The position numbers and the translations under genes are program-made. A stretch of DNA of 64,000 nucleotides from Methanobrevibacter sp. V74 (lineage in GTDB: Archaea; Methanobacteriota; Methanobacteria; Methanobacteriales; Methanobacteriaceae). Shown piece by piece: positions 52,360-62,599 of the stretch; within the stretch, counting starts at the first letter, position 1; each line of letters starts with the position of its first letter. Where the stretch lies: NCBI RefSeq assembly GCF_963082495.1, contig NZ_CAUJAN010000001.1:62001-126000 (forward strand), in the 5' to 3' direction. The notes under the pieces are model-generated. The model had not been told where the DNA came from. It was given only the letters and a program-made list of their open reading frames with translations, and did no database searches.

Positions 52360-55300
52360 TTGTATAATGAAAATTCCTACGAACAATCAATAATTGAATT
52401 GTTTCAGAATTTAGGATATAATCATTATTATGGTCCAGATATTGAAAGAGATTATACTACTCCTTTATTCAAATCAGATTTGGAAAATTTATATGATATT
52501 AATTTTTCATTAGATGAAGAAGCTGTTGATAAAGCTATTGAAGCTATTCAAGATTTTGGTATTGGATCTTTAGAAGAGAAAAACAATAAATTTATGAATT
52601 TTCTTCAAAATGGTATAAATGTAAATTATTGGAAAAATAATAAAGAAGAGTCTACTCATGTTAAACTTATTAATTTTGATAATTTAGATTCTAATTTATT
52701 TACAATAATCAATCAATGGACTGTTGTTGATAATGAAACTAAAATTCCAGATGTTGTTGTATTTATTAATGGGATTCCTTTAGTAGTTTGTGAGTTAAAA
52801 TCACCTTCTCGTGATGATACTGATACTTCAGAAGCATATACTCAATTAAAAAAATACATGAAAGTAATTCCAAATTTATTTAATTATAATGCTTTTTGTG
52901 TAATGAGTGATTTATCAATATCAAAAGCAGGAACAATAACTGCAAATGAAGACAGATTTATGGAATGGAAAACAACAGATGGAAGTTATGAAACAACACA
53001 ATGGGCAGATTTCACGACTTTTTTTGAAGGGATATTTGAAAAAAATAGATTCATTGATATTTTAAAGAATTTTATTACATTTTCAAATGATTCAACTAAA
53101 AAAATTAAGATTTTAGGTGCTTATCATCAATATTTTGCTGTTAATAAAGCGGTGGAATCTACTATTAAAGCTATTGGAAGTAATCATAAAGCAGGTGTAT
53201 TTTGGCATACTCAAGGAAGTGGAAAAAGCTTATCGATGATATTTTATGTAAATAAACTCCAACAAAGACTTGAAAGCCCCACTTTTGTTGTAATAACTGA
53301 CCGTAATGACTTAGATGATCAATTATTTTTACAATTTAGTAAATGTAGTGACTTTTTAAGACAAACTCCAAAACAAGCATCAAGTATGAAAGATTTAAAA
53401 GCATTGCTAAAAGACAGACAAGCTAATGGCATATTTTTCACAACAATGCAAAAATTTGATGATTATGATGAATCTTTAACTGAGAGGGATGATGTCATAG
53501 TAATTTCTGATGAAGCACACCGTAGCCAATATGGTTTTGAAGAAAGAGTAAATCCTAAAACTGGTGAAATGATAATTGGCGCTGCAAGAAGAATCCGTAA
53601 TGCTCTTCCAAATGCAACATATATCGGTTTTACAGGCACACCTATATCAAAAGCTGATAAAAGCACTAGGGAAGTATTTGGAAATTACATTGATATTTAT
53701 GACATGACTCAATCAGTTGAGGATGGTGCAACAGTACCGATAAGTTATGAAAGCCGTATTGCTGAGGTTAAATTAGATGAAACCATATTGCAAAAAATCG
53801 ATGATAAATATTGGGAGCTACGTGAACAAGCTGAAGAGTATAATATTGAGCGAAGTAAACGTGAATTAAGTAAAATGGAATCGTTACTTGGAGCTCCTGA
53901 AATAATTGAGGATATTTGTCAGGATATTGTACAACACTATGAAAATAATCGAGCTATTGAATTAACAGGTAAAGCAATGATTGTTGCATATTCAAGAGCA
54001 ATTGCAATAAAAATGTATAAAAAAATATTAGAGTTACGTCCAGATTGGGAGGAAAAAGTAAAAGTAGTGGTTAGTGATTATAATAAAGATCCTGAAGAAT
54101 GGTATAATATCATTGGAGGTAAATCTTATAGAAAAGAACTTGAAAACAAATTTAAAGATGATGAAGATCCAATGAAAATAGCTATTGTAGTAGATAAATG
54201 GTTAACTGGATTTGATGTTCCGTCACTTGCGACAATGTATGTCTACAAACCAATGAAAGGTCACAATTTAATGCAAGCAATTGCTCGTGTTAATAGGGTA
54301 TTTAAAGGGAAAGAAGGTGGACTTGTCGTTGATTACATTGGAATAGCATCTGAACTTAAAAAAGCCATGAGTGAATATACTGAAAGGGATAATAAAAATT
54401 ATGGGGATATGGATGTTGATAAAATTGCTTATCCAAAGTTCCAAGAAAAATTAGAAATTTGTCAGGATTTGTTCCATGGTTTTGACTACTCTAACTTCTT
54501 TGGTGAAAGTAATTTAAAGAGATCACAAGTTATTTCTGAGGGAGTAAATTTCATGGAAGATTTATCTCGTGGGGAAACTAAAGATTCATTTTTAAAAGAA
54601 GCATTGATTCTTAAAAAATGGTTATCTTTGTGTAGAAGTAGGGCAAATGAAAAAGAAAGATTTGAAGTTGCATTTTTTGAAGCAGTTAGGACTGTAATTG
54701 TTAAAGTATCTTCTGATAATAAATTATCCTTTAATCAAATCAACAAACAAATTACTGAATTACTTAATCAGTCTATTAAAAGTACTGGAGTAATTAATGT
54801 AATTAATGTTAGTGATGAAGTATCCTTATTTGATTCTGAATTTTTAGATAAAGTACGTGCAATGGAATCATCAAATTTAATAATTTCTCTTTTAGAAAAA
54901 CTACTTAATGACCAAGTTAGTGGTTATAAAACTACAAATATTGTAAAATCAGAGGAATTTTCTGAATTGCTAAAACAAACTATGAACAATTATATTAATG
55001 GTCATATAACAAATGACGAAGTCATTGAAGAGTTGATTAATATTGCAAAACTTTTACATGACGCACATTTAGAGGGAGAGAAATTAGGGTTAACTGAAGA
55101 GGAATTAGCTTTTTATAATGCTATTGCTTTGCCAAAGAACATTCATCAATTTTATGATGATGAAACATTAGTTAAAATTACTCAAGAATTGACTGAGTCT
55201 TTAAGAAATAATCGGACAATTGACTGGCAGAAAAAAGAATCCGCAAGAGCGAATATGAGAAGAACAGTAAAAAGATTACTTAAAAAATATGATTATCCTC

Positions 55301-55371
55301 CAGAGGATATGAATTTTGCTTTAGAAAAAGTTATAGCACAATGTGAATTATGGGTTGATGGAACAGCATAG
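52360..55371 (+). CDS. hsdR: Type I restriction enzyme R subunit (HsdR)
   Basis: 1003 residues. Nuclease domain: KIPDVVVFINGIPLVVCELK (about 127-146, D and ExK of the PD-(D/E)xK site). Motor: HTQGSGKSLSMIFY (Walker A, about 283-296), ISDEAHRSQYG (DEAH, about 381-391), TYIGFTGTPI, then VDKWLTGFDVPSLATMYVYK and QAIARVNRVFKGKEGGLVVD of the second RecA fold; a helical C-terminal domain follows. It starts with TTG at 52360 (GGAGCTGG upstream). First gene of hsdR-hsdM-x-hsdS-hsdS. Confidence 0.94.
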   Translation: MYNENSYEQSIIELFQNLGYNHYYGPDIERDYTTPLFKSDLENLYDINFSLDEEAVDKAIEAIQDFGIGSLEEKNNKFMNFLQNGINVNYWKNNKEESTHVKLINFDNLDSNLFTIINQWTVVDNETKIPDVVVFINGIPLVVCELKSPSRDDTDTSEAYTQLKKYMKVIPNLFNYNAFCVMSDLSISKAGTITANEDRFMEWKTTDGSYETTQWADFTTFFEGIFEKNRFIDILKNFITFSNDSTKKIKILGAYHQYFAVNKAVESTIKAIGSNHKAGVFWHTQGSGKSLSMIFYVNKLQQRLESPTFVVITDRNDLDDQLFLQFSKCSDFLRQTPKQASSMKDLKALLKDRQANGIFFTTMQKFDDYDESLTERDDVIVISDEAHRSQYGFEERVNPKTGEMIIGAARRIRNALPNATYIGFTGTPISKADKSTREVFGNYIDIYDMTQSVEDGATVPISYESRIAEVKLDETILQKIDDKYWELREQAEEYNIERSKRELSKMESLLGAPEIIEDICQDIVQHYENNRAIELTGKAMIVAYSRAIAIKMYKKILELRPDWEEKVKVVVSDYNKDPEEWYNIIGGKSYRKELENKFKDDEDPMKIAIVVDKWLTGFDVPSLATMYVYKPMKGHNLMQAIARVNRVFKGKEGGLVVDYIGIASELKKAMSEYTERDNKNYGDMDVDKIAYPKFQEKLEICQDLFHGFDYSNFFGESNLKRSQVISEGVNFMEDLSRGETKDSFLKEALILKKWLSLCRSRANEKERFEVAFFEAVRTVIVKVSSDNKLSFNQINKQITELLNQSIKSTGVINVINVSDEVSLFDSEFLDKVRAMESSNLIISLLEKLLNDQVSGYKTTNIVKSEEFSELLKQTMNNYINGHITNDEVIEELINIAKLLHDAHLEGEKLGLTEEELAFYNAIALPKNIHQFYDDETLVKITQELTESLRNNRTIDWQKKESARANMRRTVKRLLKKYDYPPEDMNFALEKVIAQCELWVDGTA

Positions 55372-55379
55372 GTGATTAA

Positions 55380-56879
55380 ATGGTAGAAAATAGTAGTGAA
55401 ATAGGATTTGAAAAACAAATTTGGGATGCAGCAGATGAACTTAGAGGTTCAATGGATGCTGCTGAATACAAACATGTAGTATTAGGTTTAATTTTTTTAA
55501 AATATTTATCTGATAAATTTGAAGAAAAATATCAAGAACTTGTCGATGAAGGGAAAGGATTCGAGGAAGACATTGATGAATATACTTCAGAAAACATATT
55601 TTTTGTTCCATCTGAAGCAAGATGGGAAGAAATTGCTAAAAAAGCAAACACGGAAGAAAATGGCCTTACAATAGATAATGCAATGAAAGCTATTGAAGAT
55701 AATAACAAATCTCTTAAAGGAATTTTACCTAAAAACTTTTCAAGACCTGAATTAGATAAAAAGAAATTAGGTGCGGTCATTGATATATTCACTAATGTGC
55801 AGATGTCTGATAAAGGAGATAAAAAAGATATTTTAGGACGTACTTATGAATATTGTTTAAGTATGTTTGCAGAAACTGAAGGTAAAAAGGCAGGAGAATT
55901 TTACACACCAGCATGTGTTGTAAAAACATTAGTATCAGTTTTAAAGCCGTATGATGGAAGGGTTTATGATCCATGCTGTGGTTCTGGAGGAATGTTTGTC
56001 CAATCCAAAAATTTCATTGAAAATCACAGCGGAAATATTAAAAAAATCTCTATATATGGACAAGAATCAAATCCTACTACTTGGAAAATGGCAAGAATGA
56101 ATTTGGCAATACGAGGATTAGAAGCAGACCTTGGAGGACATCAAGAAGATACATTTCTCAATGATTTACATAAAACATTAAAAGCAGATTTTGTAATGGC
56201 GAATCCACCATTCAATCTTAAAAAATGGGGACAAGAACAATTACAAGATGATTTAAGGTGGAAATATGGAATTCCACCAAAAGGAAATGCAAATTTTGCA
56301 TGGATGCAACACATGATTCATCATTTATCTCCAAGAGGAAAAATAGGTCTTGTTTTAGCTAATGGTTCACTTTCTTCTACAAATTCTGGTGAAGGGAAAA
56401 TTAGACAATCTATTGTTGAAGATGATTTGGTAGAAGGTATTGTTGCATTACCAACACAATTGTTCTATACTACAGGAATACCAGTATGCTTATGGTTTTT
56501 AAATAGGGATAAGAAACAAAAAGGTAAAACATTGTTTATTGATGCACGGGAAATGGGAACAATGGTTTCACGCAAATTACGTGAATTAACTGAGGAGGAT
56601 ATTGAATTAATTGCTGATACATTTACTAAATTTGAAGAAGGAACTTTAGAAGATGAGAAGGGGTTCTGTAAAGTAAGTGATTTAGATGAAATTAAAAAAC
56701 ATGACTTTATTTTAACTCCCGGTCGTTATGTTGGATTTAAGCCTGAGGAAGATGATGGAATCCCATTTGAAGAAAAGATGAAAACATTAACTGAGGAATT
56801 GGATGAACTGTTTAAAGAATCCAATGAACTTGAAGAAAAAATTAGGAAAAGTTTAGGGGAAATTGGGTTTGAGTTCTAG
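55380..56879 (+). CDS. hsdM: Type I restriction-modification methylase subunit (HsdM)
   Basis: 499 residues, N6-adenine methyltransferase. N-terminal helical domain (FEKQIWDAADELRGSMDAAE, HVVLGLIFLKYLSDKFEEKY), SAM motif GRVYDPCCGSGGMFVQS (about 190-206), catalytic FVMANPPFNL (about 271-280), KGNANFAWMQHMIHHLSPRG and GRYVGFKPEEDDGIPFEEKM, with a C-terminal coiled-coil. GGTGATTAA precedes the ATG, 8 bases after hsdR. Its end overlaps the start of the next gene. Confidence 0.95.
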   Translation: MVENSSEIGFEKQIWDAADELRGSMDAAEYKHVVLGLIFLKYLSDKFEEKYQELVDEGKGFEEDIDEYTSENIFFVPSEARWEEIAKKANTEENGLTIDNAMKAIEDNNKSLKGILPKNFSRPELDKKKLGAVIDIFTNVQMSDKGDKKDILGRTYEYCLSMFAETEGKKAGEFYTPACVVKTLVSVLKPYDGRVYDPCCGSGGMFVQSKNFIENHSGNIKKISIYGQESNPTTWKMARMNLAIRGLEADLGGHQEDTFLNDLHKTLKADFVMANPPFNLKKWGQEQLQDDLRWKYGIPPKGNANFAWMQHMIHHLSPRGKIGLVLANGSLSSTNSGEGKIRQSIVEDDLVEGIVALPTQLFYTTGIPVCLWFLNRDKKQKGKTLFIDAREMGTMVSRKLRELTEEDIELIADTFTKFEEGTLEDEKGFCKVSDLDEIKKHDFILTPGRYVGFKPEEDDGIPFEEKMKTLTEELDELFKESNELEEKIRKSLGEIGFEF

Positions 56880-57360
56880 AGAATATTCTAAAGAAAAAAC
56901 AATTGATATTATTAATGAAGTATTAAATCAATTCATGGAAAATGATATTATTCTTTTAGATATAGGGGCTAATGAAAGAACAATATCTCATAAGATTGCA
57001 TGTTATTTAGATAAGAAGTTTGAAAATTTGGATGTTGATTGTGAGTACAATCGTGATATAAATAATATTAAAAATATATCTGGAATTTGTAATAACTTCA
57101 ATCATGTTCTTCCAGACATTATTGTTCATAAAAGACTTGAGGATTTTAATCATTTAGTTATTGAAATTAAAAAAGATGCTTCAGAATATGATAAAAAAAG
57201 AGATATTCAAAAGTTAAATTGTTTAAAAAAGAAATTTAATTACAATTTTGCTTTATTTATTTCTTTTGATGCAGAAAAACAAAATCCAGAAATTACATGG
57301 GATTTTGATAGGGAATTTGATGAATTACTTGATATTAATTGTTTTGATGATGAATTATAA
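56869..57360 (+). CDS. PD-(D/E)xK nuclease-like protein inserted in the hsd operon
   Basis: 163 residues, starting with TTG 56869 (GGGGA at 56856-56860; an earlier TTG at 56863 is too close), overlapping the end of hsdM by 11 bases. LPDIIVHKRLEDFNHLVIEI continuing KKDA fits the D...(D/E)xK core of restriction-endonuclease-like folds (Asp near 85, Glu-Ile-Lys near 102-104). Other parts: NERTISHKIACYLDKKFENL, FNYNFALFISFDAE. It sits between hsdM and hsdS, where such a gene is not standard. Whether it cuts DNA or only has the fold is not known. Confidence 0.7.
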   Translation: MSSREYSKEKTIDIINEVLNQFMENDIILLDIGANERTISHKIACYLDKKFENLDVDCEYNRDINNIKNISGICNNFNHVLPDIIVHKRLEDFNHLVIEIKKDASEYDKKRDIQKLNCLKKKFNYNFALFISFDAEKQNPEITWDFDREFDELLDINCFDDEL

Positions 57361-57374
57361 AAAATAAATGATGT

Positions 57375-57391
57375 GATAAATTTGAGTTTAG
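57375..57391 (+). repeat. hsdS start repeat, copy 1
   Basis: GATAAATTTGAGTTTAG, spanning the TTG start of hsdS1. An identical 17-base copy in inverted orientation is at the start of the third hsdS (62255-62271), and a 15-base copy (TAAATTTGAGTTTAG) begins hsdS2. Candidate inversion or exchange site. Confidence 0.5.
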
Positions 57392-58614
57392 AGTTTAATG
57401 AAGATACTTTAATTGATTTATGCGAATTAGTAACAGATGGTTCCCACCATAGTCCACCTTCACAAGTAAAAGGTTATTATATGGCCTCTGTTAAAGATAT
57501 GGGAACATATAAATTTAATTATTCTGATTGTAGAAAAATATCTGAAGAGGATTATAATAAATTAGTTAAATCTGGATGTTCTCCTAAAAATGATGATATT
57601 TTAATTGCAAAAGATGGATCGCCTTTATCAAATATTTTTATTTACAAAGAAGAATATCCTATGGTTCTTTTATCGTCTATAGCAATCATAAGGGCAAATA
57701 AAAACAAGATACTGCCAGAATTTTTAAAATATTATTTAGAAAATCATTCTATTAAAAGATATATTCAAACTACTTATACATCAGGATCAGTTATTCCAAG
57801 AATTATTCTTAAAGATTTTAAAAAATTTCCAATAATTTATCCTAATATGGAGAATCAAAAGAAAATAATTGGAATTCTAAGAACTATTGATAAAAAAATT
57901 GCTATAAATGAAGAAATAAACAAAAATTTTGAAAAAACTTTGAGTGAAATATTTAAAAGTTGGTTTATTAATTTTGAAATTTATGATAATACTGTTGGAA
58001 TGAAAATTGATGAAAATTTTGGTGAAATTCCTAAAATATGGACAGTTGAAATGCTAGATGAATATGTTGATTTTGTATCTGGTATTGAACCTGGAAGTAA
58101 AAATTATCACGAAGAAAAAGAAGATAATTGCATACCATTTATACGTGTAGGGAATTTAGGATCAAGAGATAATATGGTGTATATAGATAAAAATCTTTCA
58201 AAAAATAAAATTTTAGAACCAACAGATATTGTTTTATCTTTAGATGCAACAATAGGAATTGTTAAAATAGGATTGAAGGGTGCATATTCCACAGGTATGA
58301 GGAAACTTGTAATAAAAAATGATAATATAACTAAAGTATTTTTATATTGTCTTGTAAAATCAAAAAGAATTCAAAATATTATTGAAACTTTTGCTACTGG
58401 AACAACTATATTACATGCTGGAAAATCAATAACTCATATGGATTTTGTTTTACCGGATGCTAAAACAATGAAAAAATTTAACAAAATTGGAGAACCAATT
58501 TTCTTAAAAATATTAAAAAATAAAAAAGAAATAACAAAATTAATAAATCTTAGAAATTTACTATTGCCTAAACTAATGTCTGGAGAAATAGATGTGTCTA
58601 GTATAGAATTATAA
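57382..58614 (+). CDS. hsdS: Type I specificity subunit HsdS, copy 1 (expressed position)
   Basis: About 410 residues; TTG at 57382 (MSLEFNEDTLIDLCEL) with GATGTGAT just upstream; GTG 57373 overlaps that site. Two target-recognition domains, each ending in a coiled coil: TRD1 (ITDG-type start LVTDGSHHSPPS, about 10-150) then KKIIGILRTIDKKIAINEEI NKNF; TRD2 (GEIPKIWTVEMLDEYVDFVS, about 215-360) then KEITKLINLRNLLLPKLMSG. Determines the DNA sequence recognised by HsdM/HsdR. It is the only hsdS here with a clear ribosome binding site. Confidence 0.9.
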   Translation: MSLEFNEDTLIDLCELVTDGSHHSPPSQVKGYYMASVKDMGTYKFNYSDCRKISEEDYNKLVKSGCSPKNDDILIAKDGSPLSNIFIYKEEYPMVLLSSIAIIRANKNKILPEFLKYYLENHSIKRYIQTTYTSGSVIPRIILKDFKKFPIIYPNMENQKKIIGILRTIDKKIAINEEINKNFEKTLSEIFKSWFINFEIYDNTVGMKIDENFGEIPKIWTVEMLDEYVDFVSGIEPGSKNYHEEKEDNCIPFIRVGNLGSRDNMVYIDKNLSKNKILEPTDIVLSLDATIGIVKIGLKGAYSTGMRKLVIKNDNITKVFLYCLVKSKRIQNIIETFATGTTILHAGKSITHMDFVLPDAKTMKKFNKIGEPIFLKILKNKKEITKLINLRNLLLPKLMSGEIDVSSIEL

Positions 58615-58643
58615 TTAGTAAAGAATATTCTGAATTAATATTC

Positions 58644-58658
58644 TAAATTTGAGTTTAG
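58644..58658 (+). repeat. hsdS start repeat, copy 2, with adjacent hairpin
   Basis: TAAATTTGAGTTTAG at the TTG start of hsdS2, direct to copy 1 and inverted to copy 3. Directly before it AGAATATT (58622-58629) and AATATTCT (58637-58644) form a perfect 8-bp hairpin. There is no ribosome binding site in front of this start. Confidence 0.5.
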
Positions 58659-59899
58659 AATGGAATGTTACAACTGTTGGGGAATTATGTTCCAATGTTT
58701 CAAGTGGGGGCACACCAAAAAGTACAAATGAAGAATATTATGGTGGAGACATTCCTTGGTTGAATACTAAAGAAGTTAATTTTAATAGAATCTATGATAC
58801 TGAAAAACATATTACAAATGAAGGTTTTGAAAATAGCGCTGCAAAATGGGTTAAAAAAGATTCTGTGATTGTTGCAATGTATGGAGCAACTGCTGCAAAA
58901 GTAGCAATGAACATGGTTGATCTCACTACAAATCAAGCTTGTTGTAATTTAACTATTGATAAATCATTAGCAAATCCGAAATTTGTTTATTATTATCTTT
59001 ATAGCAATTATGAAAAATTATTGAACTTAGCATCTGGTGCTGCACAACAAAATTTAAATTCAAATATAATAAAAGAATTTCCAATCAATATTCCCTCTTT
59101 AAAAGTTCAAAATAATGTTGTTAATTTATTATCTACAATTGATGATAAAATAGAAATCAACCAGAAAATAAACAAAAATTTAGAGAGTATTATAAAAATT
59201 TTTTACAAAAATTGGTTTGAAGATTTTGAACCTTTTAAAAAAATGGAATTTCATAATACTAAGTTAGGTAAAATTCCAAACGGTTGGAATGTCTTACCAT
59301 TGAAAGATTTTATTAAGTTTCAAGAAGGTCCAGGTATAAGAAATTGGCAGTATGTTGATGAAAATGGTGTTAATTTTTTGAACATTAGATGTATTCAAAA
59401 TAATGATTTGATTTTAGATACTGCCAACATGATTTCAAAAGAAGAAGCTGAAGGAAAATATTCTCATTTCATGCTTGAAGAATGGGATCTCGTTATTTCA
59501 TCATCAGGAACATTAGGTAGATATGCAATTGTTAGAAGAGAGCACCTTCCATTATGTTTAAACACAAGCATTATAAGATTTAGTCCAATGCATTCATTTA
59601 ATCATTATTCTTATATTTATTCATATTTAACTTCAAGAGGTTTTTATCATCATCTTTTAACAATGGGTAGTGGTAGTGTTCAATTAAACTTTGGACCAAC
59701 ACATTTGAAAAAAATTGATTTAATTGTGCCTCCAAAATATATTTTAAATGAATATAATGATTTAATTTTTCCTTTAATTAAAAAAAGTGTAACTATAAAA
59801 TCAGAAATTACTAAATTAATTAAGTTACGAGACACATTACTTCCAAAATTAATGTCTGGTGAAATTGATGTTTCAGAGGTAAATTGTGATTTAGAATAG
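58649..59899 (+). CDS. hsdS: Type I specificity subunit HsdS, copy 2
   Basis: 416 residues from TTG 58649 (MSLEWNVTTVGELCSNVSSG). TRD1: GGTPKSTNEEYYGGDIPWLN, YGATAAKVAMNMVDLTTNQA, then NVVNLLSTIDDKIEINQKIN; TRD2: LGKIPNGWNVLPLKDFIKFQ, LVISSSGTLGRYAIVRREHL, closing KLRDTLLPKLMSGEIDVSEV. It lacks a good ribosome binding site and follows hsdS1 by 34 bases including a hairpin. Its last 57 bases before the tail are identical to the third hsdS. It may be a reserve copy or poorly expressed. Confidence 0.9.
   Translation: MSLEWNVTTVGELCSNVSSGGTPKSTNEEYYGGDIPWLNTKEVNFNRIYDTEKHITNEGFENSAAKWVKKDSVIVAMYGATAAKVAMNMVDLTTNQACCNLTIDKSLANPKFVYYYLYSNYEKLLNLASGAAQQNLNSNIIKEFPINIPSLKVQNNVVNLLSTIDDKIEINQKINKNLESIIKIFYKNWFEDFEPFKKMEFHNTKLGKIPNGWNVLPLKDFIKFQEGPGIRNWQYVDENGVNFLNIRCIQNNDLILDTANMISKEEAEGKYSHFMLEEWDLVISSSGTLGRYAIVRREHLPLCLNTSIIRFSPMHSFNHYSYIYSYLTSRGFYHHLLTMGSGSVQLNFGPTHLKKIDLIVPPKYILNEYNDLIFPLIKKSVTIKSEITKLIKLRDTLLPKLMSGEIDVSEVNCDLE
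59836..59892 (+). repeat. 57-bp inverted repeat, left copy (end of hsdS2)
   Basis: Begins ATTACTTCCAAAATTAATGT and ends GGTAAATTGTGATTT. Reverse complement of 61075-61131 without a mismatch. It encodes LPKLMSGEIDVSEVNCDL. Together the repeats enclose the recombinase gene. Confidence 0.93.
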
Positions 59900-60026
59900 G
59901 CATTATCTTCTATTCACTAATTTTTTTTTATCAATTTGGTATCATTATTGATTAATTCCATAGATTTAATAACACTGTTATATTATTTTTAATAAAATAT
60001 AAATCTATTTAATTATCTTTTTAATT

Positions 60027-61013
60027 TTATCCTATGAATTTCCGATGGGCAAGTTTAACATTACTTTGATTAACCATTGCATATTGCATTGTTGTGTCAA
60101 TTTGAACATGTCCTAGTAATTTCTGTACTTGTTCTATGGGCATTCCTTTATCAATGGCATTTGTTGCCATTGTTCGTCTAAATTTATGTGGATGAACATT
60201 ATTTATATTGCATTTTTTACCAAGTTCCCTTAATCTAGTTTCTACTCCATTTATTCCTAGCCGTTTAAATGGTTTATTTAGCGAAACAAATAATGCAGGA
60301 TTTGTGTCAGTCCTTGTTTGCAGATATTCCATTAAATGTATTTTTGTTCGTGCATCGAAATATACTACTCTTTCACTTTCACCTTTACCAAAAACAACAC
60401 ATTCTCTTTCATAAAAGTCAACATCATTTATGTTTAGATTTACTAATTCCCCCACCCGTATTCCAGTTGATATTAATAATTCTACCATAGAAAGATCTCT
60501 TATTTCATCACAGTTGTCTCTTAAAACTTCTAAATTTTCATCGGTCAATACTTCTTTAACAACGCGCCCTGTTTTCACCCGGTGTATTCTTCTAACAGGA
60601 TTTTTAAGTATGTAATCCTCATCCTCTAACCATGAAAAAAAACTTGAGAATATTCGTCTTATATTATCTATGGTTGTTTTTGATGAATTTTTGGCATATT
60701 TATGATCAAAAAGATATTTTCGTAAATCATCAGTTGTAATGTTATAAACTTGTTTTTTTAACTTTAACAACATTTTTTCAATTGTTGATTTATAATAAAC
60801 AATTGTTTTATCAGAACAACCTTCTACTTGCTTTGCTGATAAAAATAATTTCAATAACTTGAAATTATCTGTTTCATTCATTTCATTATTATTATCAATC
60901 AATTCAATATCTTTAAAAGAATTTAATAATGAATTTGTCAATTTTAGATATTGACCTTGATTTAAATAAGGTTTCATTTGGTTTTGTATTTTTGATATTA
61001 TTTTTGTTTTCAT
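60027..61013 (-). CDS. Tyrosine recombinase (XerC/D-like), candidate hsdS invertase
   Basis: 328 residues from ATG 61013 (MKTKIISKIQNQMK), with a strong AAGGAGTGA at 61019-61027, so it can be translated on its own although the frame continues upstream into hsdS3. N-terminal SAM-like domain (FKLLKLFLSAKQVEGCSDKT, IDNIRRIFSSFFSWLEDEDY) and catalytic domain: Arg in LISTGIRVGELVNLNI, Lys in CVVFGKGESERVVYF, HPHKFRRTMATN (H-x-x-R), KLLGHVQIDTTMQYAMVN (His and nucleophile Tyr). Lying inside the 57-bp inverted repeat, it is the likely enzyme for inversions at this locus. Confidence 0.92.
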   Translation of the reverse strand: MKTKIISKIQNQMKPYLNQGQYLKLTNSLLNSFKDIELIDNNNEMNETDNFKLLKLFLSAKQVEGCSDKTIVYYKSTIEKMLLKLKKQVYNITTDDLRKYLFDHKYAKNSSKTTIDNIRRIFSSFFSWLEDEDYILKNPVRRIHRVKTGRVVKEVLTDENLEVLRDNCDEIRDLSMVELLISTGIRVGELVNLNINDVDFYERECVVFGKGESERVVYFDARTKIHLMEYLQTRTDTNPALFVSLNKPFKRLGINGVETRLRELGKKCNINNVHPHKFRRTMATNAIDKGMPIEQVQKLLGHVQIDTTMQYAMVNQSNVKLAHRKFIG

Positions 61014-62291
61014 TTTATCACTCCTTAATATCAAATTTTCACTCTTTTTATATAAAATAGGTGAGATAATTTTCAAATCACAATTTACCTCTGAAACATC
61101 AATTTCACCAGACATTAATTTTGGAAGTAATATGTCCCTTAACTTCTGCAATTTTTTAATTTCTAAATTGTTGTAATAAATTTCTTTAAATAATGGTTCT
61201 GCAATTGCATTGAATTTGGATAAAATGATATCGTCTGGCAAAACAAATTCGATTAGTTTCGTGTCTTTATTATTAATCGCTTGCATTGTTGTTCCAGTAC
61301 AAAAATTATTTTTAAGTGTATCAAATGTGTCAGATAATAAAAATGTCCAAAGATAATAAAAATAATTATCAGAACATTTTAAACCACAAAATCCAGTAGA
61401 AAAAATGTAATTATTCAATAAATCATGGCAGTAATCATCAACCATAATCAATTTCCGTGAATCAATCATTTTTGCAAACCAAATACTTTTTTCAATTGGT
61501 TGCATATTAGCTCTACTAGGTTTATTTTCAATGGTTATTAATGTTTCGTCATTTGTAATAATGGAGTTGTCTACATCGGCAGTAGCAATATAAATCTTAG
61601 AATTATTAAATTCATTAATTCCAGAACCAATAATAAAGCATGATCTTTTACTGCCCAAATAATCAACAACCCAACCTTTTGGTATTAATCCTAATGTAGA
61701 TTCAATAAATTCATCAGATAAATCAAACTGAAAAAACCAATTATCAAAAATTTTTAAAATTTGTTCCTCTAAATTTTTGTTTAACTTTTTATTAATCTCG
61801 ATTTTTCTGTCAATTTCACCTAAAAATGAAGATATTTTCTGTTGTTTATCAATTGAAAAATTAGGTACTGTATAATTTTGAATAGCTTTTTTATCTCCTC
61901 TTGGCATCTTTGTTCCTTTTGCATTTGCCATTACATAATTGAAAAAATCATCTGAGGATAAAACATAGTACAAGAACTTAGAATCATAGTTTTCATTAGA
62001 TCTTAAAACATAAATATCATTAGAACACCCACCTTCCATATCAGAATACCATATTTTTTTAAAGTATGGACGTATGTTATTAATTAATATGTCTTTAGGC
62101 ATATATTCTCTGACAGACTTTGTATCAGGCAATGAGCTAGCTATTGTAATTCCTCCTTTATTTGGGAGCATATTTTCTGTAGAAATATAATTGCTTTCAT
62201 TTATTTCAGATACTTCAATTTTTGAAGATACAAACTTAGCAACATCATTTAATACTAAACTCAAATTTATCGGAAATTTAAAATATGCCAA
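60027..62291 (-). CDS. hsdS: Third HsdS (silent orientation) reading in frame into the recombinase
   Basis: A single 754-codon frame. Residues about 10-415 are an HsdS: TRD1 (SEINESNYISTENMLPNKGG), SSFLGEIDRKIEINKKLNKN linker, TRD2 (LGLIPKGWVVDYLGSKRSCF), and LRDILLPKLMSGEIDVSEVN. No stop follows; about 20 codons later comes the ATG of the recombinase. The frame opens at TTG 62291, but comparison with hsdS1 and hsdS2 points to TTG 62264 (start repeat). No binding site precedes either TTG. So the HsdS part is probably an unexpressed or weakly expressed cassette until inverted behind hsdM. Confidence 0.85.
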   Translation of the reverse strand: MAYFKFPINLSLVLNDVAKFVSSKIEVSEINESNYISTENMLPNKGGITIASSLPDTKSVREYMPKDILINNIRPYFKKIWYSDMEGGCSNDIYVLRSNENYDSKFLYYVLSSDDFFNYVMANAKGTKMPRGDKKAIQNYTVPNFSIDKQQKISSFLGEIDRKIEINKKLNKNLEEQILKIFDNWFFQFDLSDEFIESTLGLIPKGWVVDYLGSKRSCFIIGSGINEFNNSKIYIATADVDNSIITNDETLITIENKPSRANMQPIEKSIWFAKMIDSRKLIMVDDYCHDLLNNYIFSTGFCGLKCSDNYFYYLWTFLLSDTFDTLKNNFCTGTTMQAINNKDTKLIEFVLPDDIILSKFNAIAEPLFKEIYYNNLEIKKLQKLRDILLPKLMSGEIDVSEVNCDLKIISPILYKKSENLILRSDKMKTKIISKIQNQMKPYLNQGQYLKLTNSLLNSFKDIELIDNNNEMNETDNFKLLKLFLSAKQVEGCSDKTIVYYKSTIEKMLLKLKKQVYNITTDDLRKYLFDHKYAKNSSKTTIDNIRRIFSSFFSWLEDEDYILKNPVRRIHRVKTGRVVKEVLTDENLEVLRDNCDEIRDLSMVELLISTGIRVGELVNLNINDVDFYERECVVFGKGESERVVYFDARTKIHLMEYLQTRTDTNPALFVSLNKPFKRLGINGVETRLRELGKKCNINNVHPHKFRRTMATNAIDKGMPIEQVQKLLGHVQIDTTMQYAMVNQSNVKLAHRKFIG
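61075..61131 (-). repeat. 57-bp inverted repeat, right copy (end of hsdS3)
   Basis: Perfect reverse complement of 59836-59892. Sequence outside the repeat differs at once on both sides: after it hsdS2 continues to a TAG two codons later, whereas hsdS3 continues open towards the recombinase. Confidence 0.93.
62255..62271 (-). repeat. hsdS start repeat, copy 3 (inverted)
   Basis: Reads GATAAATTTGAGTTTAG on the minus strand, identical over 17 bases to 57375-57391. In hsdS1 the bases just upstream hold the ribosome binding site (GATGTGAT); here they are TTTCC, so the homology stops at the point where an exchange would join the expression signal. Confidence 0.5.
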
Positions 62292-62599
62292 ATAAAATAA
62301 TAAATTTAAATGTCGGAATTTTTATTTCTCAGATACTTGCTGTGCAGGGAATTCTTCTGATATAACTGTGATTCTATATTTATTGTAGTGTATGTCAGAT
62401 TTTATCAAGTATTACGAATTTGATTGGTAATACTTTTCTTATTTTGTTCAAGTAATAGATTAGTCATCGTTATTTTGATGATCGACTTTAAATATCAAGT
62501 TAAATAAAATAATACGTTTTTAATATAACAATTATTATATTGAACAAAATATTAATTTTATTATCTTTTTTAACTAATTGGGTAAATCATAACTTGGCA

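What the first reader, a model, noticed from the sequence alone, without database searches (positions are those of the whole stretch)
57373..62291. Invertible type I restriction specificity locus with three hsdS genes and its own tyrosine recombinase
Seen: hsdS1 and hsdS2 forward behind hsdR-hsdM, hsdS3 on the opposite strand, a tyrosine recombinase between them, inverted repeats at both the start and end of hsdS copies. Known: in bacteria, recombinase-driven inversion among hsdS genes switches methylation patterns. Inference: this methanogen locus is a shufflon giving alternative methylomes. Such switching is little described in archaea, so it could be the notable system of this window.
Basis: partly seen in the sequence, partly recalled or inferred. 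Interest (0 to 1): 0.85.

Follow-up and report, generated by a model that had tools for sequence, protein, structure and literature searches.

The report
Methanogen DNA-methylation specificity shuffling locus
A methanogen of a genus found in animal guts carries a restriction-modification locus whose three specificity genes look built to be cut and rejoined by their own recombinase, so the archaeon could change which DNA sequences it marks and attacks; this kind of switch is well known in bacteria, and I found no description of it in archaea.

Summary
In detail: hsdR-hsdM, two forward hsdS, one reverse hsdS and a XerA-like tyrosine recombinase, with inverted repeats at hsdS starts, centres and ends. 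I propose recombination sites TAAA-N6-TTTAG: A (spacer TTTGAG) at the start of all three hsdS, B (CAAAAA) at the centre, C (TTGTGA) at the end. The A 15-mer occurs three times in the 2.3-Mb genome, always at an hsdS start. In 12 further loci of the group with a recombinase at 86-94% identity, hsdS lies beside it; target-recognition halves are reassorted (13 pairs share one half, none both); the recombinase faces the other way in 2 of 11; contigs or a gap stop within 3 bp of A or B in three genomes, implying alternative junctions there. Bacterial relatives (mostly 59-66% identity) have hsdS nearby in 59 of 64 loci and repeated TAAA-N6-TTTAG sites in 47. Best reading: an inverting type I restriction-modification system, working like pneumococcal SpnIII/cod but with another site. 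Inversion in this strain and methylome change are untested. Ten literature searches gave no archaeal report. New variant of a known kind.

The parts
52360..55371 (+). hsdR, type I restriction subunit
   Evidence: TIGR00348 597 bits against cut-off 284.55; Pfam HSDR_N, T1RH-like_C
55380..56879 (+). hsdM, type I methyltransferase subunit
   Evidence: Pfam N6_Mtase 378 bits, HsdM_N 107 bits; TIGR00497 194 bits, under its cut-off of 242.75
56863..57360 (+). 165-aa ORF between hsdM and hsdS1; not needed for the mechanism
   Evidence: found in 1 of 67 genus genomes at E<=1e-8; PADLOC PD-Lambda-3_A 103 bits; no Pfam family over its cut-off
57373..58614 (+). hsdS1, hsdM-proximal copy, presumed expressed; start probably TTG at 57382 inside site A1
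   Evidence: Methylase_S 82 bits, two stretches; 5-nt Shine-Dalgarno-like match GTGAT upstream
58649..59899 (+). hsdS2, presumed silent; TTG start inside site A2
   Evidence: Methylase_S 134 bits; no ribosome-binding match over 3 nt
61073..62291 (-). hsdS3, presumed silent, reverse; no stop of its own before the recombinase
   Evidence: Methylase_S 37 bits; PADLOC Specificity_I 192 bits
60027..61013 (-). XerA-like tyrosine recombinase, proposed hsdS invertase
   Evidence: NF040815 258 bits against cut-off 220; presumed catalytic R186, K210, H276, R279, H302, Y311 invariant in an alignment of 15 (roles from general knowledge)
57377..57391 (+). site A1 TAAA-TTTGAG-TTTAG
58644..58658 (+). site A2, identical to A1
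62255..62269 (-). site A3, identical, inverted
57917..57931 (+). site B1, degenerate (TAAA-CAAAAA-TTTTG)
   Evidence: read from the sequence
59169..59183 (+). site B2 TAAA-CAAAAA-TTTAG
61769..61783 (-). site B3, identical to B2, inverted
59880..59894 (+). site C2 TAAA-TTGTGA-TTTAG at the 3' end of hsdS2
61073..61087 (-). site C3, same spacer, right arm TTTGA, at the 3' end of hsdS3
   Evidence: read from the sequence
59836..59892 (+). 57-bp exact inverted repeat, arm 1; ends 3 bp past the C2 spacer
61075..61131 (-). 57-bp exact inverted repeat, arm 2

Best explanation
This is an inverting type I restriction-modification locus. A dedicated tyrosine recombinase recombines short sites TAAA-N6-TTTAG lying at the same three points of the hsdS genes: A at the start codon, B between the two target-recognition domains (TRDs), C before the stop. 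Sites of a class share a spacer and should recombine only with each other, so genes and half genes are exchanged in register. A1 x A3 inversion (57377-62269) would bring hsdS3 behind hsdM; B2 x B3 would swap the second TRDs of hsdS2 and hsdS3; A1 x A2, direct repeats, would excise hsdS1; C2 x C3 would flip the recombinase alone. Only the copy behind hsdM is thought to be translated, because the ribosome-binding site lies outside the movable part while the start codon (TTG) lies inside site A. Three full alleles follow from whole-gene moves, five if B2/B3 also work, up to nine if the degenerate B1 works. Shown: genes, sites, conservation, mosaicism, and assembly breaks at sites in relatives. 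Inferred: enzyme-site match, cleavage in the spacer, silence of hsdS2/3, activity in this strain, methylome change.
For: A 15-mer: 3 of 3 genome occurrences at hsdS starts. All 12 other distinct loci with a recombinase at 86-94% identity have hsdS within 3.5 kb. A-like sites at hsdS starts with unrelated flanks upstream and unrelated cassettes downstream. Exact A 16-mer: 29 hits in 67 genus genomes against 2 for the reversed control; by my reading lie at an hsdS or hsdM, 2 (L109, L112) on an outer flank, 1 (L108) at nothing related. Ribosome-binding match of at least 5 nt at 13 of 15 hsdM-proximal A sites against 2 of 24 others, both tandem second copies. TRD mosaics: of 20 HsdS with both halves, 13 pairs share one half at >=65% (7 first, 6 second), 0 share both, no cross-register match above 32%. 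Recombinase orientation relative to hsdRM: 9 convergent, 2 same direction. Assembly ends: G013 C48 and C46 both stop 3 bases past A, at the end of an 18-bp stretch they share, and G013 C30 stops 1 base beyond B; G016 C98 starts 1 base before B and overlaps C74 by exactly 141 bp; an N run in L050 (G003) starts at base 15 of A. Bacterial relatives: 59 of 64 with hsdS nearby, 47 of 64 with repeated-spacer sites, 0 of 64 in shuffles.
Against: No inverted reads, sister strains or methylation data for this strain; its contig is resolved in one form. The window's hsdM-proximal copy has a weak ribosome-binding match. In L045 and L048 the hsdM-proximal hsdS is itself broken in frame. B identity may partly reflect conserved protein (INKNLE). 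B1 and C3 are imperfect. By the strict rule (identical spacer, exact TTTAG) only 4 of 13 clade rows show a repeated spacer, and of 26 other archaeal rows 9 have hsdS nearby and 0 a repeated spacer, so the site is not shared by the wider archaeal group. G013 is 8% contaminated and draft genomes may mix strains; the N run could be a mask. Most loci run through their sites unbroken. L044, with a 94% identical recombinase, has another hsdM (44%) and no A core.
Confidence: 0.86

Rival explanations
1. A static multi-specificity locus: hsdS copies arose by duplication and gene exchange between species, and the recombinase is a passenger or no longer acts.
For: The window's locus is resolved in one form; B1 and C3 are imperfect; several relatives' hsdS copies are broken in frame, the hsdM-proximal one in L045 and L048; old exchange alone would also give mosaics.
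Against: Contigs and an N run ending within 3 bp of A or B in G013, G016 and G003; recombinase kept beside hsdS in 12 of 12 other loci, though its frame is split in L054; both recombinase orientations present; 57-bp exact repeat between otherwise unlike genes.
Confidence: 0.09
2. Switching occurs mainly by homologous recombination between longer repeats, not by the recombinase.
For: 57-bp exact 3' repeat; pneumococcal spnIII still shuffles on its long repeats without CreX (passages of PMC6620402).
Against: The 57-bp repeat lies 3' of the TRDs of hsdS2 and hsdS3, so its inversion flips only the recombinase segment; the breaks and mosaic joints in relatives fall at A and B, where exact identity is about 15-18 bp.
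Confidence: 0.03
3. The recombinase is the chromosomal XerA that resolves chromosome dimers at dif and merely lies beside the locus.
For: It is the only one of 7 matches in the genome over the NF040815 cut-off; the best-matching solved structure is a XerA.
Against: No relative at E<=1e-10 in 30 of 67 genus genomes, including the single-contig G004 and G008 at 99% completeness; instead tied to hsdS. Whether another recombinase serves dif was not examined.
Confidence: 0.02

Closest known systems
SpnIII / Spn556II (cod) locus of Streptococcus pneumoniae with PsrA (CreX)
   Same: hsdR, hsdM, three hsdS and a tyrosine recombinase; a 15-bp and longer inverted repeats; recombinase orientation flips relative to hsdRM; one active and two unexpressed hsdS (passages of PMC4948785, PMC7096588, PMC6620402).
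   Different: The shared core there is ATTATGGGAA, preceded by CTCTT in two of three repeats; here TAAA-N6-TTTAG in three spacer classes, and ATTATGGGAA has no exact match in the window (one-mismatch hits at chance). The organism is an archaeon. The PsrA protein was not compared.
hsdS-linked tyrosine recombinases of gut Firmicutes and Bacteroidetes (e.g. Streptococcus suis 10581, Faecalibacterium, Ruminococcus, Bacteroides)
   Same: 59-66% identical recombinase, beside hsdM and several hsdS in both orientations, repeated TAAA-N6-TTTAG sites.
   Different: As far as I read the 21 loci, they mostly repeat one spacer class, at hsdS centres and half-gene ends; the archaeal clade has further classes at the start codon and at the 3' end. 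Archaeal recombinases fall on one side of the tree with a single Bacteroidota bin, L125.
SpnIV / tvr locus of S. pneumoniae
   Different: Here direct repeats A1/A2 make excision possible, but excision was not observed.

Membership tests
[quoted passage not shown]
[quoted passage not shown]
   no two of the three window HsdS share a half at >=65%
[quoted passage not shown]
[quoted passage not shown]
   ribosome-binding match at 13 of 15 hsdM-proximal sites against 2 of 24 others; no expression data
[quoted passage not shown]
   assembly breaks at A/B in relatives G013, G016, G003; nothing for this strain
[quoted passage not shown]
   no methylation data held
PsrA/CreX recombinases of pneumococcus | acts on the core ATTATGGGAA | tested here: not met
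   0 exact matches in the window, 15 at one mismatch against 11.9 expected; sequence taken from passages
PsrA/CreX recombinases of pneumococcus | protein homology to PsrA | not tested
   no pneumococcal genome reached (one search failed)
NCBIfam NF040815 recomb_XerA_Arch | score over curated cut-off | tested here: met
   258 bits against 220
chromosomal XerA/dif resolvase | present in nearly all genomes of the group (expectation from general knowledge) | tested here: not met
   37 of 67 genus genomes have any relative at E<=1e-10

The most novel reading that the evidence does not exclude
A register-coded, integron-like cassette system in archaea: three spacer classes (A start, B middle, C end) let one recombinase exchange half-gene TRD cassettes in frame, not only within the locus but between species, with orphan A-to-B half cassettes elsewhere in the genome as a reservoir and occasional capture of foreign genes at the expressed junction.
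Probability: 0.3. Interest if true: 0.78.

Novelty: new variant of a known kind. Interest (0 to 1): 0.6.

Why it matters
If it switches, these methanogens would vary their restriction barrier and methylome within a clone, affecting virus defence, gene transfer and possibly gene expression, as phasevarions do in bacteria. It offers a compact, testable case of programmed DNA inversion in archaea, a proposed site code for a recombinase group shared with gut bacteria, and a practical hint for anyone trying to transform these organisms.

Tried and rejected
Considered and set aside: housekeeping XerA (patchy); homologous recombination as main driver; static duplicates; membership in the PsrA/CreX site family (site differs). 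A search for long repeats near the recombinase in 14 archaeal loci of the wider family, most without hsdS beside it, gave no convincing site. An automatic search for shared 5' motifs in bacterial loci mostly failed, probably because ORF starts vary; an inverted-repeat search worked. Viral-contig relatives (19 loci) looked at first like provirus integrases because several lie at contig ends; all 18 that were tested have hsdS nearby, so many may be host loci at mis-set provirus borders. L217 (G061 C66) looks like bacterial contamination and was dropped. Rows dropped before counts: duplicates L114, L115, L116, L118, L119, L122, L124; L054 and L120 are one locus and both in the 13 clade rows, so I give 12 distinct loci. 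In one search, 27 of the 30 translations were used (two N-filled ones of L050 and L111, a copy of L110, left out); L044, L023 and L048 gave none; where no central motif was found I set the split point by hand. No metagenome scan was available, no structure was predicted, no strain set of one species was available.
Full report
What is there. The window holds hsdR (52360-55371), hsdM (55380-56879), a 165-aa ORF (56863-57360), hsdS1 (57373-58614) and hsdS2 (58649-59899) on the + strand, then, on the - strand, a 754-aa open frame 60027-62291 whose first part is hsdS3 and whose last part is a tyrosine recombinase. The recombinase has an ATG at 61013 behind AAGGAGTGAT, so it is probably made separately. 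It scores 258 bits against a cut-off of 220 for the archaeal XerA family, and the residues that I take as catalytic (R186, K210, H276, R279, H302, Y311; roles from general knowledge of the family) are invariant in an alignment of 15, the window's included. The genomes of the search are unnamed; contig lengths shared between (for example 76,176 bases, G042 C11 and NZ_CACXTS010000011.1) suggest that the genus is Methanobrevibacter, mostly from ruminant guts (inference).

The sites. Their useful core is short. At the start of all three hsdS lies TAAATTTGAGTTTAG, which occurs three times in the 2.3-Mb genome, all here. At the centre of hsdS2 and hsdS3 lies TAAACAAAAATTTAG, and at the 3' end of hsdS2 TAAATTGTGATTTAG, with imperfect partners in hsdS1 (centre) and hsdS3 (end) (read). 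All fit TAAA-N6-TTTAG. In 57341-62310 there are 8 such sites, 5 sharing their spacer with another; 300 dinucleotide shuffles gave 0.39 on average and no shared spacer. A 57-bp exact inverted repeat between the 3' ends of hsdS2 and hsdS3 stops 3 bp past the C spacer.

Relatives in the genus. A protein search found a relative of the recombinase in 37 of 67 genus genomes at E<=1e-10, so it is hardly a housekeeping gene. I read 40 regions around such matches. With one locus from the named collection (L117), 12 distinct loci have a recombinase at 86-94% identity; all have hsdS within 3.5 kb by a profile built here. hsdRM and recombinase are both seen in eleven loci, the window included: in nine they converge, in L050 and L052 they point the same way, as expected of flipped forms. 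A-like sites precede most hsdS, with flanks that belong to the place and cassettes that do not. The 16-mer AAATTTGAGTTTAGAW gave 29 hits in the 67 genomes, 2 for the reversed control; by my reading 26 lie at an hsdS or hsdM, two on an outer flank, one at nothing related. The wider archaeal group does not share this site: of 26 other archaeal rows 9 have hsdS nearby and none a repeated-spacer TAAA-N6-TTTAG.

Which copy is expressed. A ribosome-binding match of at least 5 nt (to a recalled consensus) precedes 13 of 15 hsdM-proximal A sites but only 2 of 24 others, both second copies in tandem. The start codon TTG lies inside A. So moving a cassette to the hsdM-proximal A site would give it a ribosome-binding site. 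In the window the match is only GTGAT; there the 165-aa ORF, found in 1 of 67 genomes, takes the place of the usual leader. In L045 and L048 the hsdM-proximal copy is broken in frame, which may be a silent state or decay.

Mosaic specificity genes. I split HsdS proteins of the clade at the centre: 47 halves from 27 proteins, 20 with both halves. Thirteen pairs share one half at 65% or more: seven the first half only, six the second only, none both; no first half resembles a second half above 32%. For example hsdS1 of the window shares its first half (90%) with L046 and its second half (72%) with L117. This is what exchange at A and B, in register, would leave.

Alternative junctions in relatives. 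In genome G013 the contig with hsdM (C48) and the contig with the outer flank (C46) both end 3 bases past A, at the end of an 18-bp stretch that they share, and the recombinase contig (C30) ends 1 base beyond B. In G016 contig C98 starts one base before B and its first 141 bases are the end of C74, which looks like the overlap of a de Bruijn graph at a branch (inference; no third contig with that stretch is held). In L050 (G003) a run of 1,240 N starts at the last base of A. G061 C57 ends 24 bp and G010 C2 63 bp past their A sites. The other loci run through their sites. A 15-bp repeat alone should not break such assemblies; alternative paths would. Strain mixtures, contamination (8% in G013) or masking may contribute, so this points to alternative junctions, not to switching within a clone.

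Bacterial kin. A scan of named genomes, capped at the best 80 loci, brought relatives at 59-66% identity from Firmicutes, Bacteroidetes and others, and one Bacteroidota bin (L125) at 71%. Of 64 such loci 59 have hsdS nearby and 47 have repeated-spacer TAAA-N6-TTTAG sites, against 0 of 64 in shuffles (20 each); of 18 viral-contig loci 18 and 8. In a quick tree of 116 sequences the 36 archaeal ones and L125 lie on one side of a branch with full SH-aLRT support. The direction of transfer is not shown.

Known systems. The pneumococcal cod/SpnIII locus works the same way (passages of PMC4948785, PMC7096588, PMC6620402), but the core shared by its repeats is ATTATGGGAA, which has no exact match here, so I do not file this recombinase with PsrA/CreX; the protein comparison could not be made. 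The survey of REBASE for inverting systems (one section and passages of PMC7394358; its data sets not read) has no word beginning with 'archae' or 'methano' in its main text; its rule (at least 20 bp, 100%) would miss the A sites but could catch the 57-bp repeat. The review of archaeal tyrosine recombinases (passages of PMC8371274) has no 'hsds', 'invertase' or 'restriction'. A survey by reads found no inversions in six archaeal datasets (passages of PMC5903667). Two Methanobrevibacter papers mention type I systems and have no 'inversion' (passages of PMC10939349 and PMC11366006). My statement that I found no archaeal report rests on searches in an open-access library without preprints, of which I saw the listings, capped at 10 or 20 papers each.

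Verdict. The structure and its shuffling logic are well supported by comparison; activity and methylome change in this strain are not tested. It is a known kind of system in a domain where I found it undescribed, with a different recombination site and three spacer classes.

Noticed in passing
window 56863-57360: 165-aa ORF between hsdM and hsdS1, PADLOC PD-Lambda-3_A-like, found in 1 of 67 genus genomes; it takes the place of the usual leader with the ribosome-binding site.
   Followed up: partly
window 60027-62291: hsdS3 and recombinase share one open frame of 754 aa; L047 has a similar 758-aa frame, and L044, L045 and L051 have 4-nt overlaps of hsdS and recombinase.
   Followed up: partly
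L110:6966-7444, L111, L113:7094-7659: Orphan first-TRD half genes outside the locus, running from site A to the B position and ending in a stop just after it.
   Followed up: partly
L057, L058, L059, L060, L063, L064: A second archaeal recombinase group (67-71% identity) beside hsdS genes of another type I system (HsdM 32-33% in five of the six), with the motif GATTTAGTGGATTT near hsdS starts in five of six, not L063.
   Followed up: partly
L066, L068, L070: Recombinase relatives a few kb from large secreted, adhesin-like proteins (my reading of the translations); no repeated site found.
   Followed up: partly
L044: Recombinase 94% identical to the window's, but with another hsdM (44%) and hsdR (33%) and no A core: the recombinase seems to have changed restriction backbone.
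   Followed up: no
L083-L101: IMG/VR contigs hold this recombinase with hsdS genes, several ending at it; provirus borders may be mis-set there.
   Followed up: no
L125: A contig binned as Bacteroidota carries an archaeal-side recombinase (71% identity to the window's): transfer or mis-binning.
   Followed up: no
L045:11274-11317: Two B sites 29 bp apart in a silent hsdS copy, probably a tandem duplication that breaks the frame.
   Followed up: no
L045 11843-11870, L050 11824-11851, L051 8222-8249: Near-perfect palindrome of two opposed A cores (TAAACTCAAATTTAAATTTGAGTTTA in L050) beside a silent cassette.
   Followed up: no
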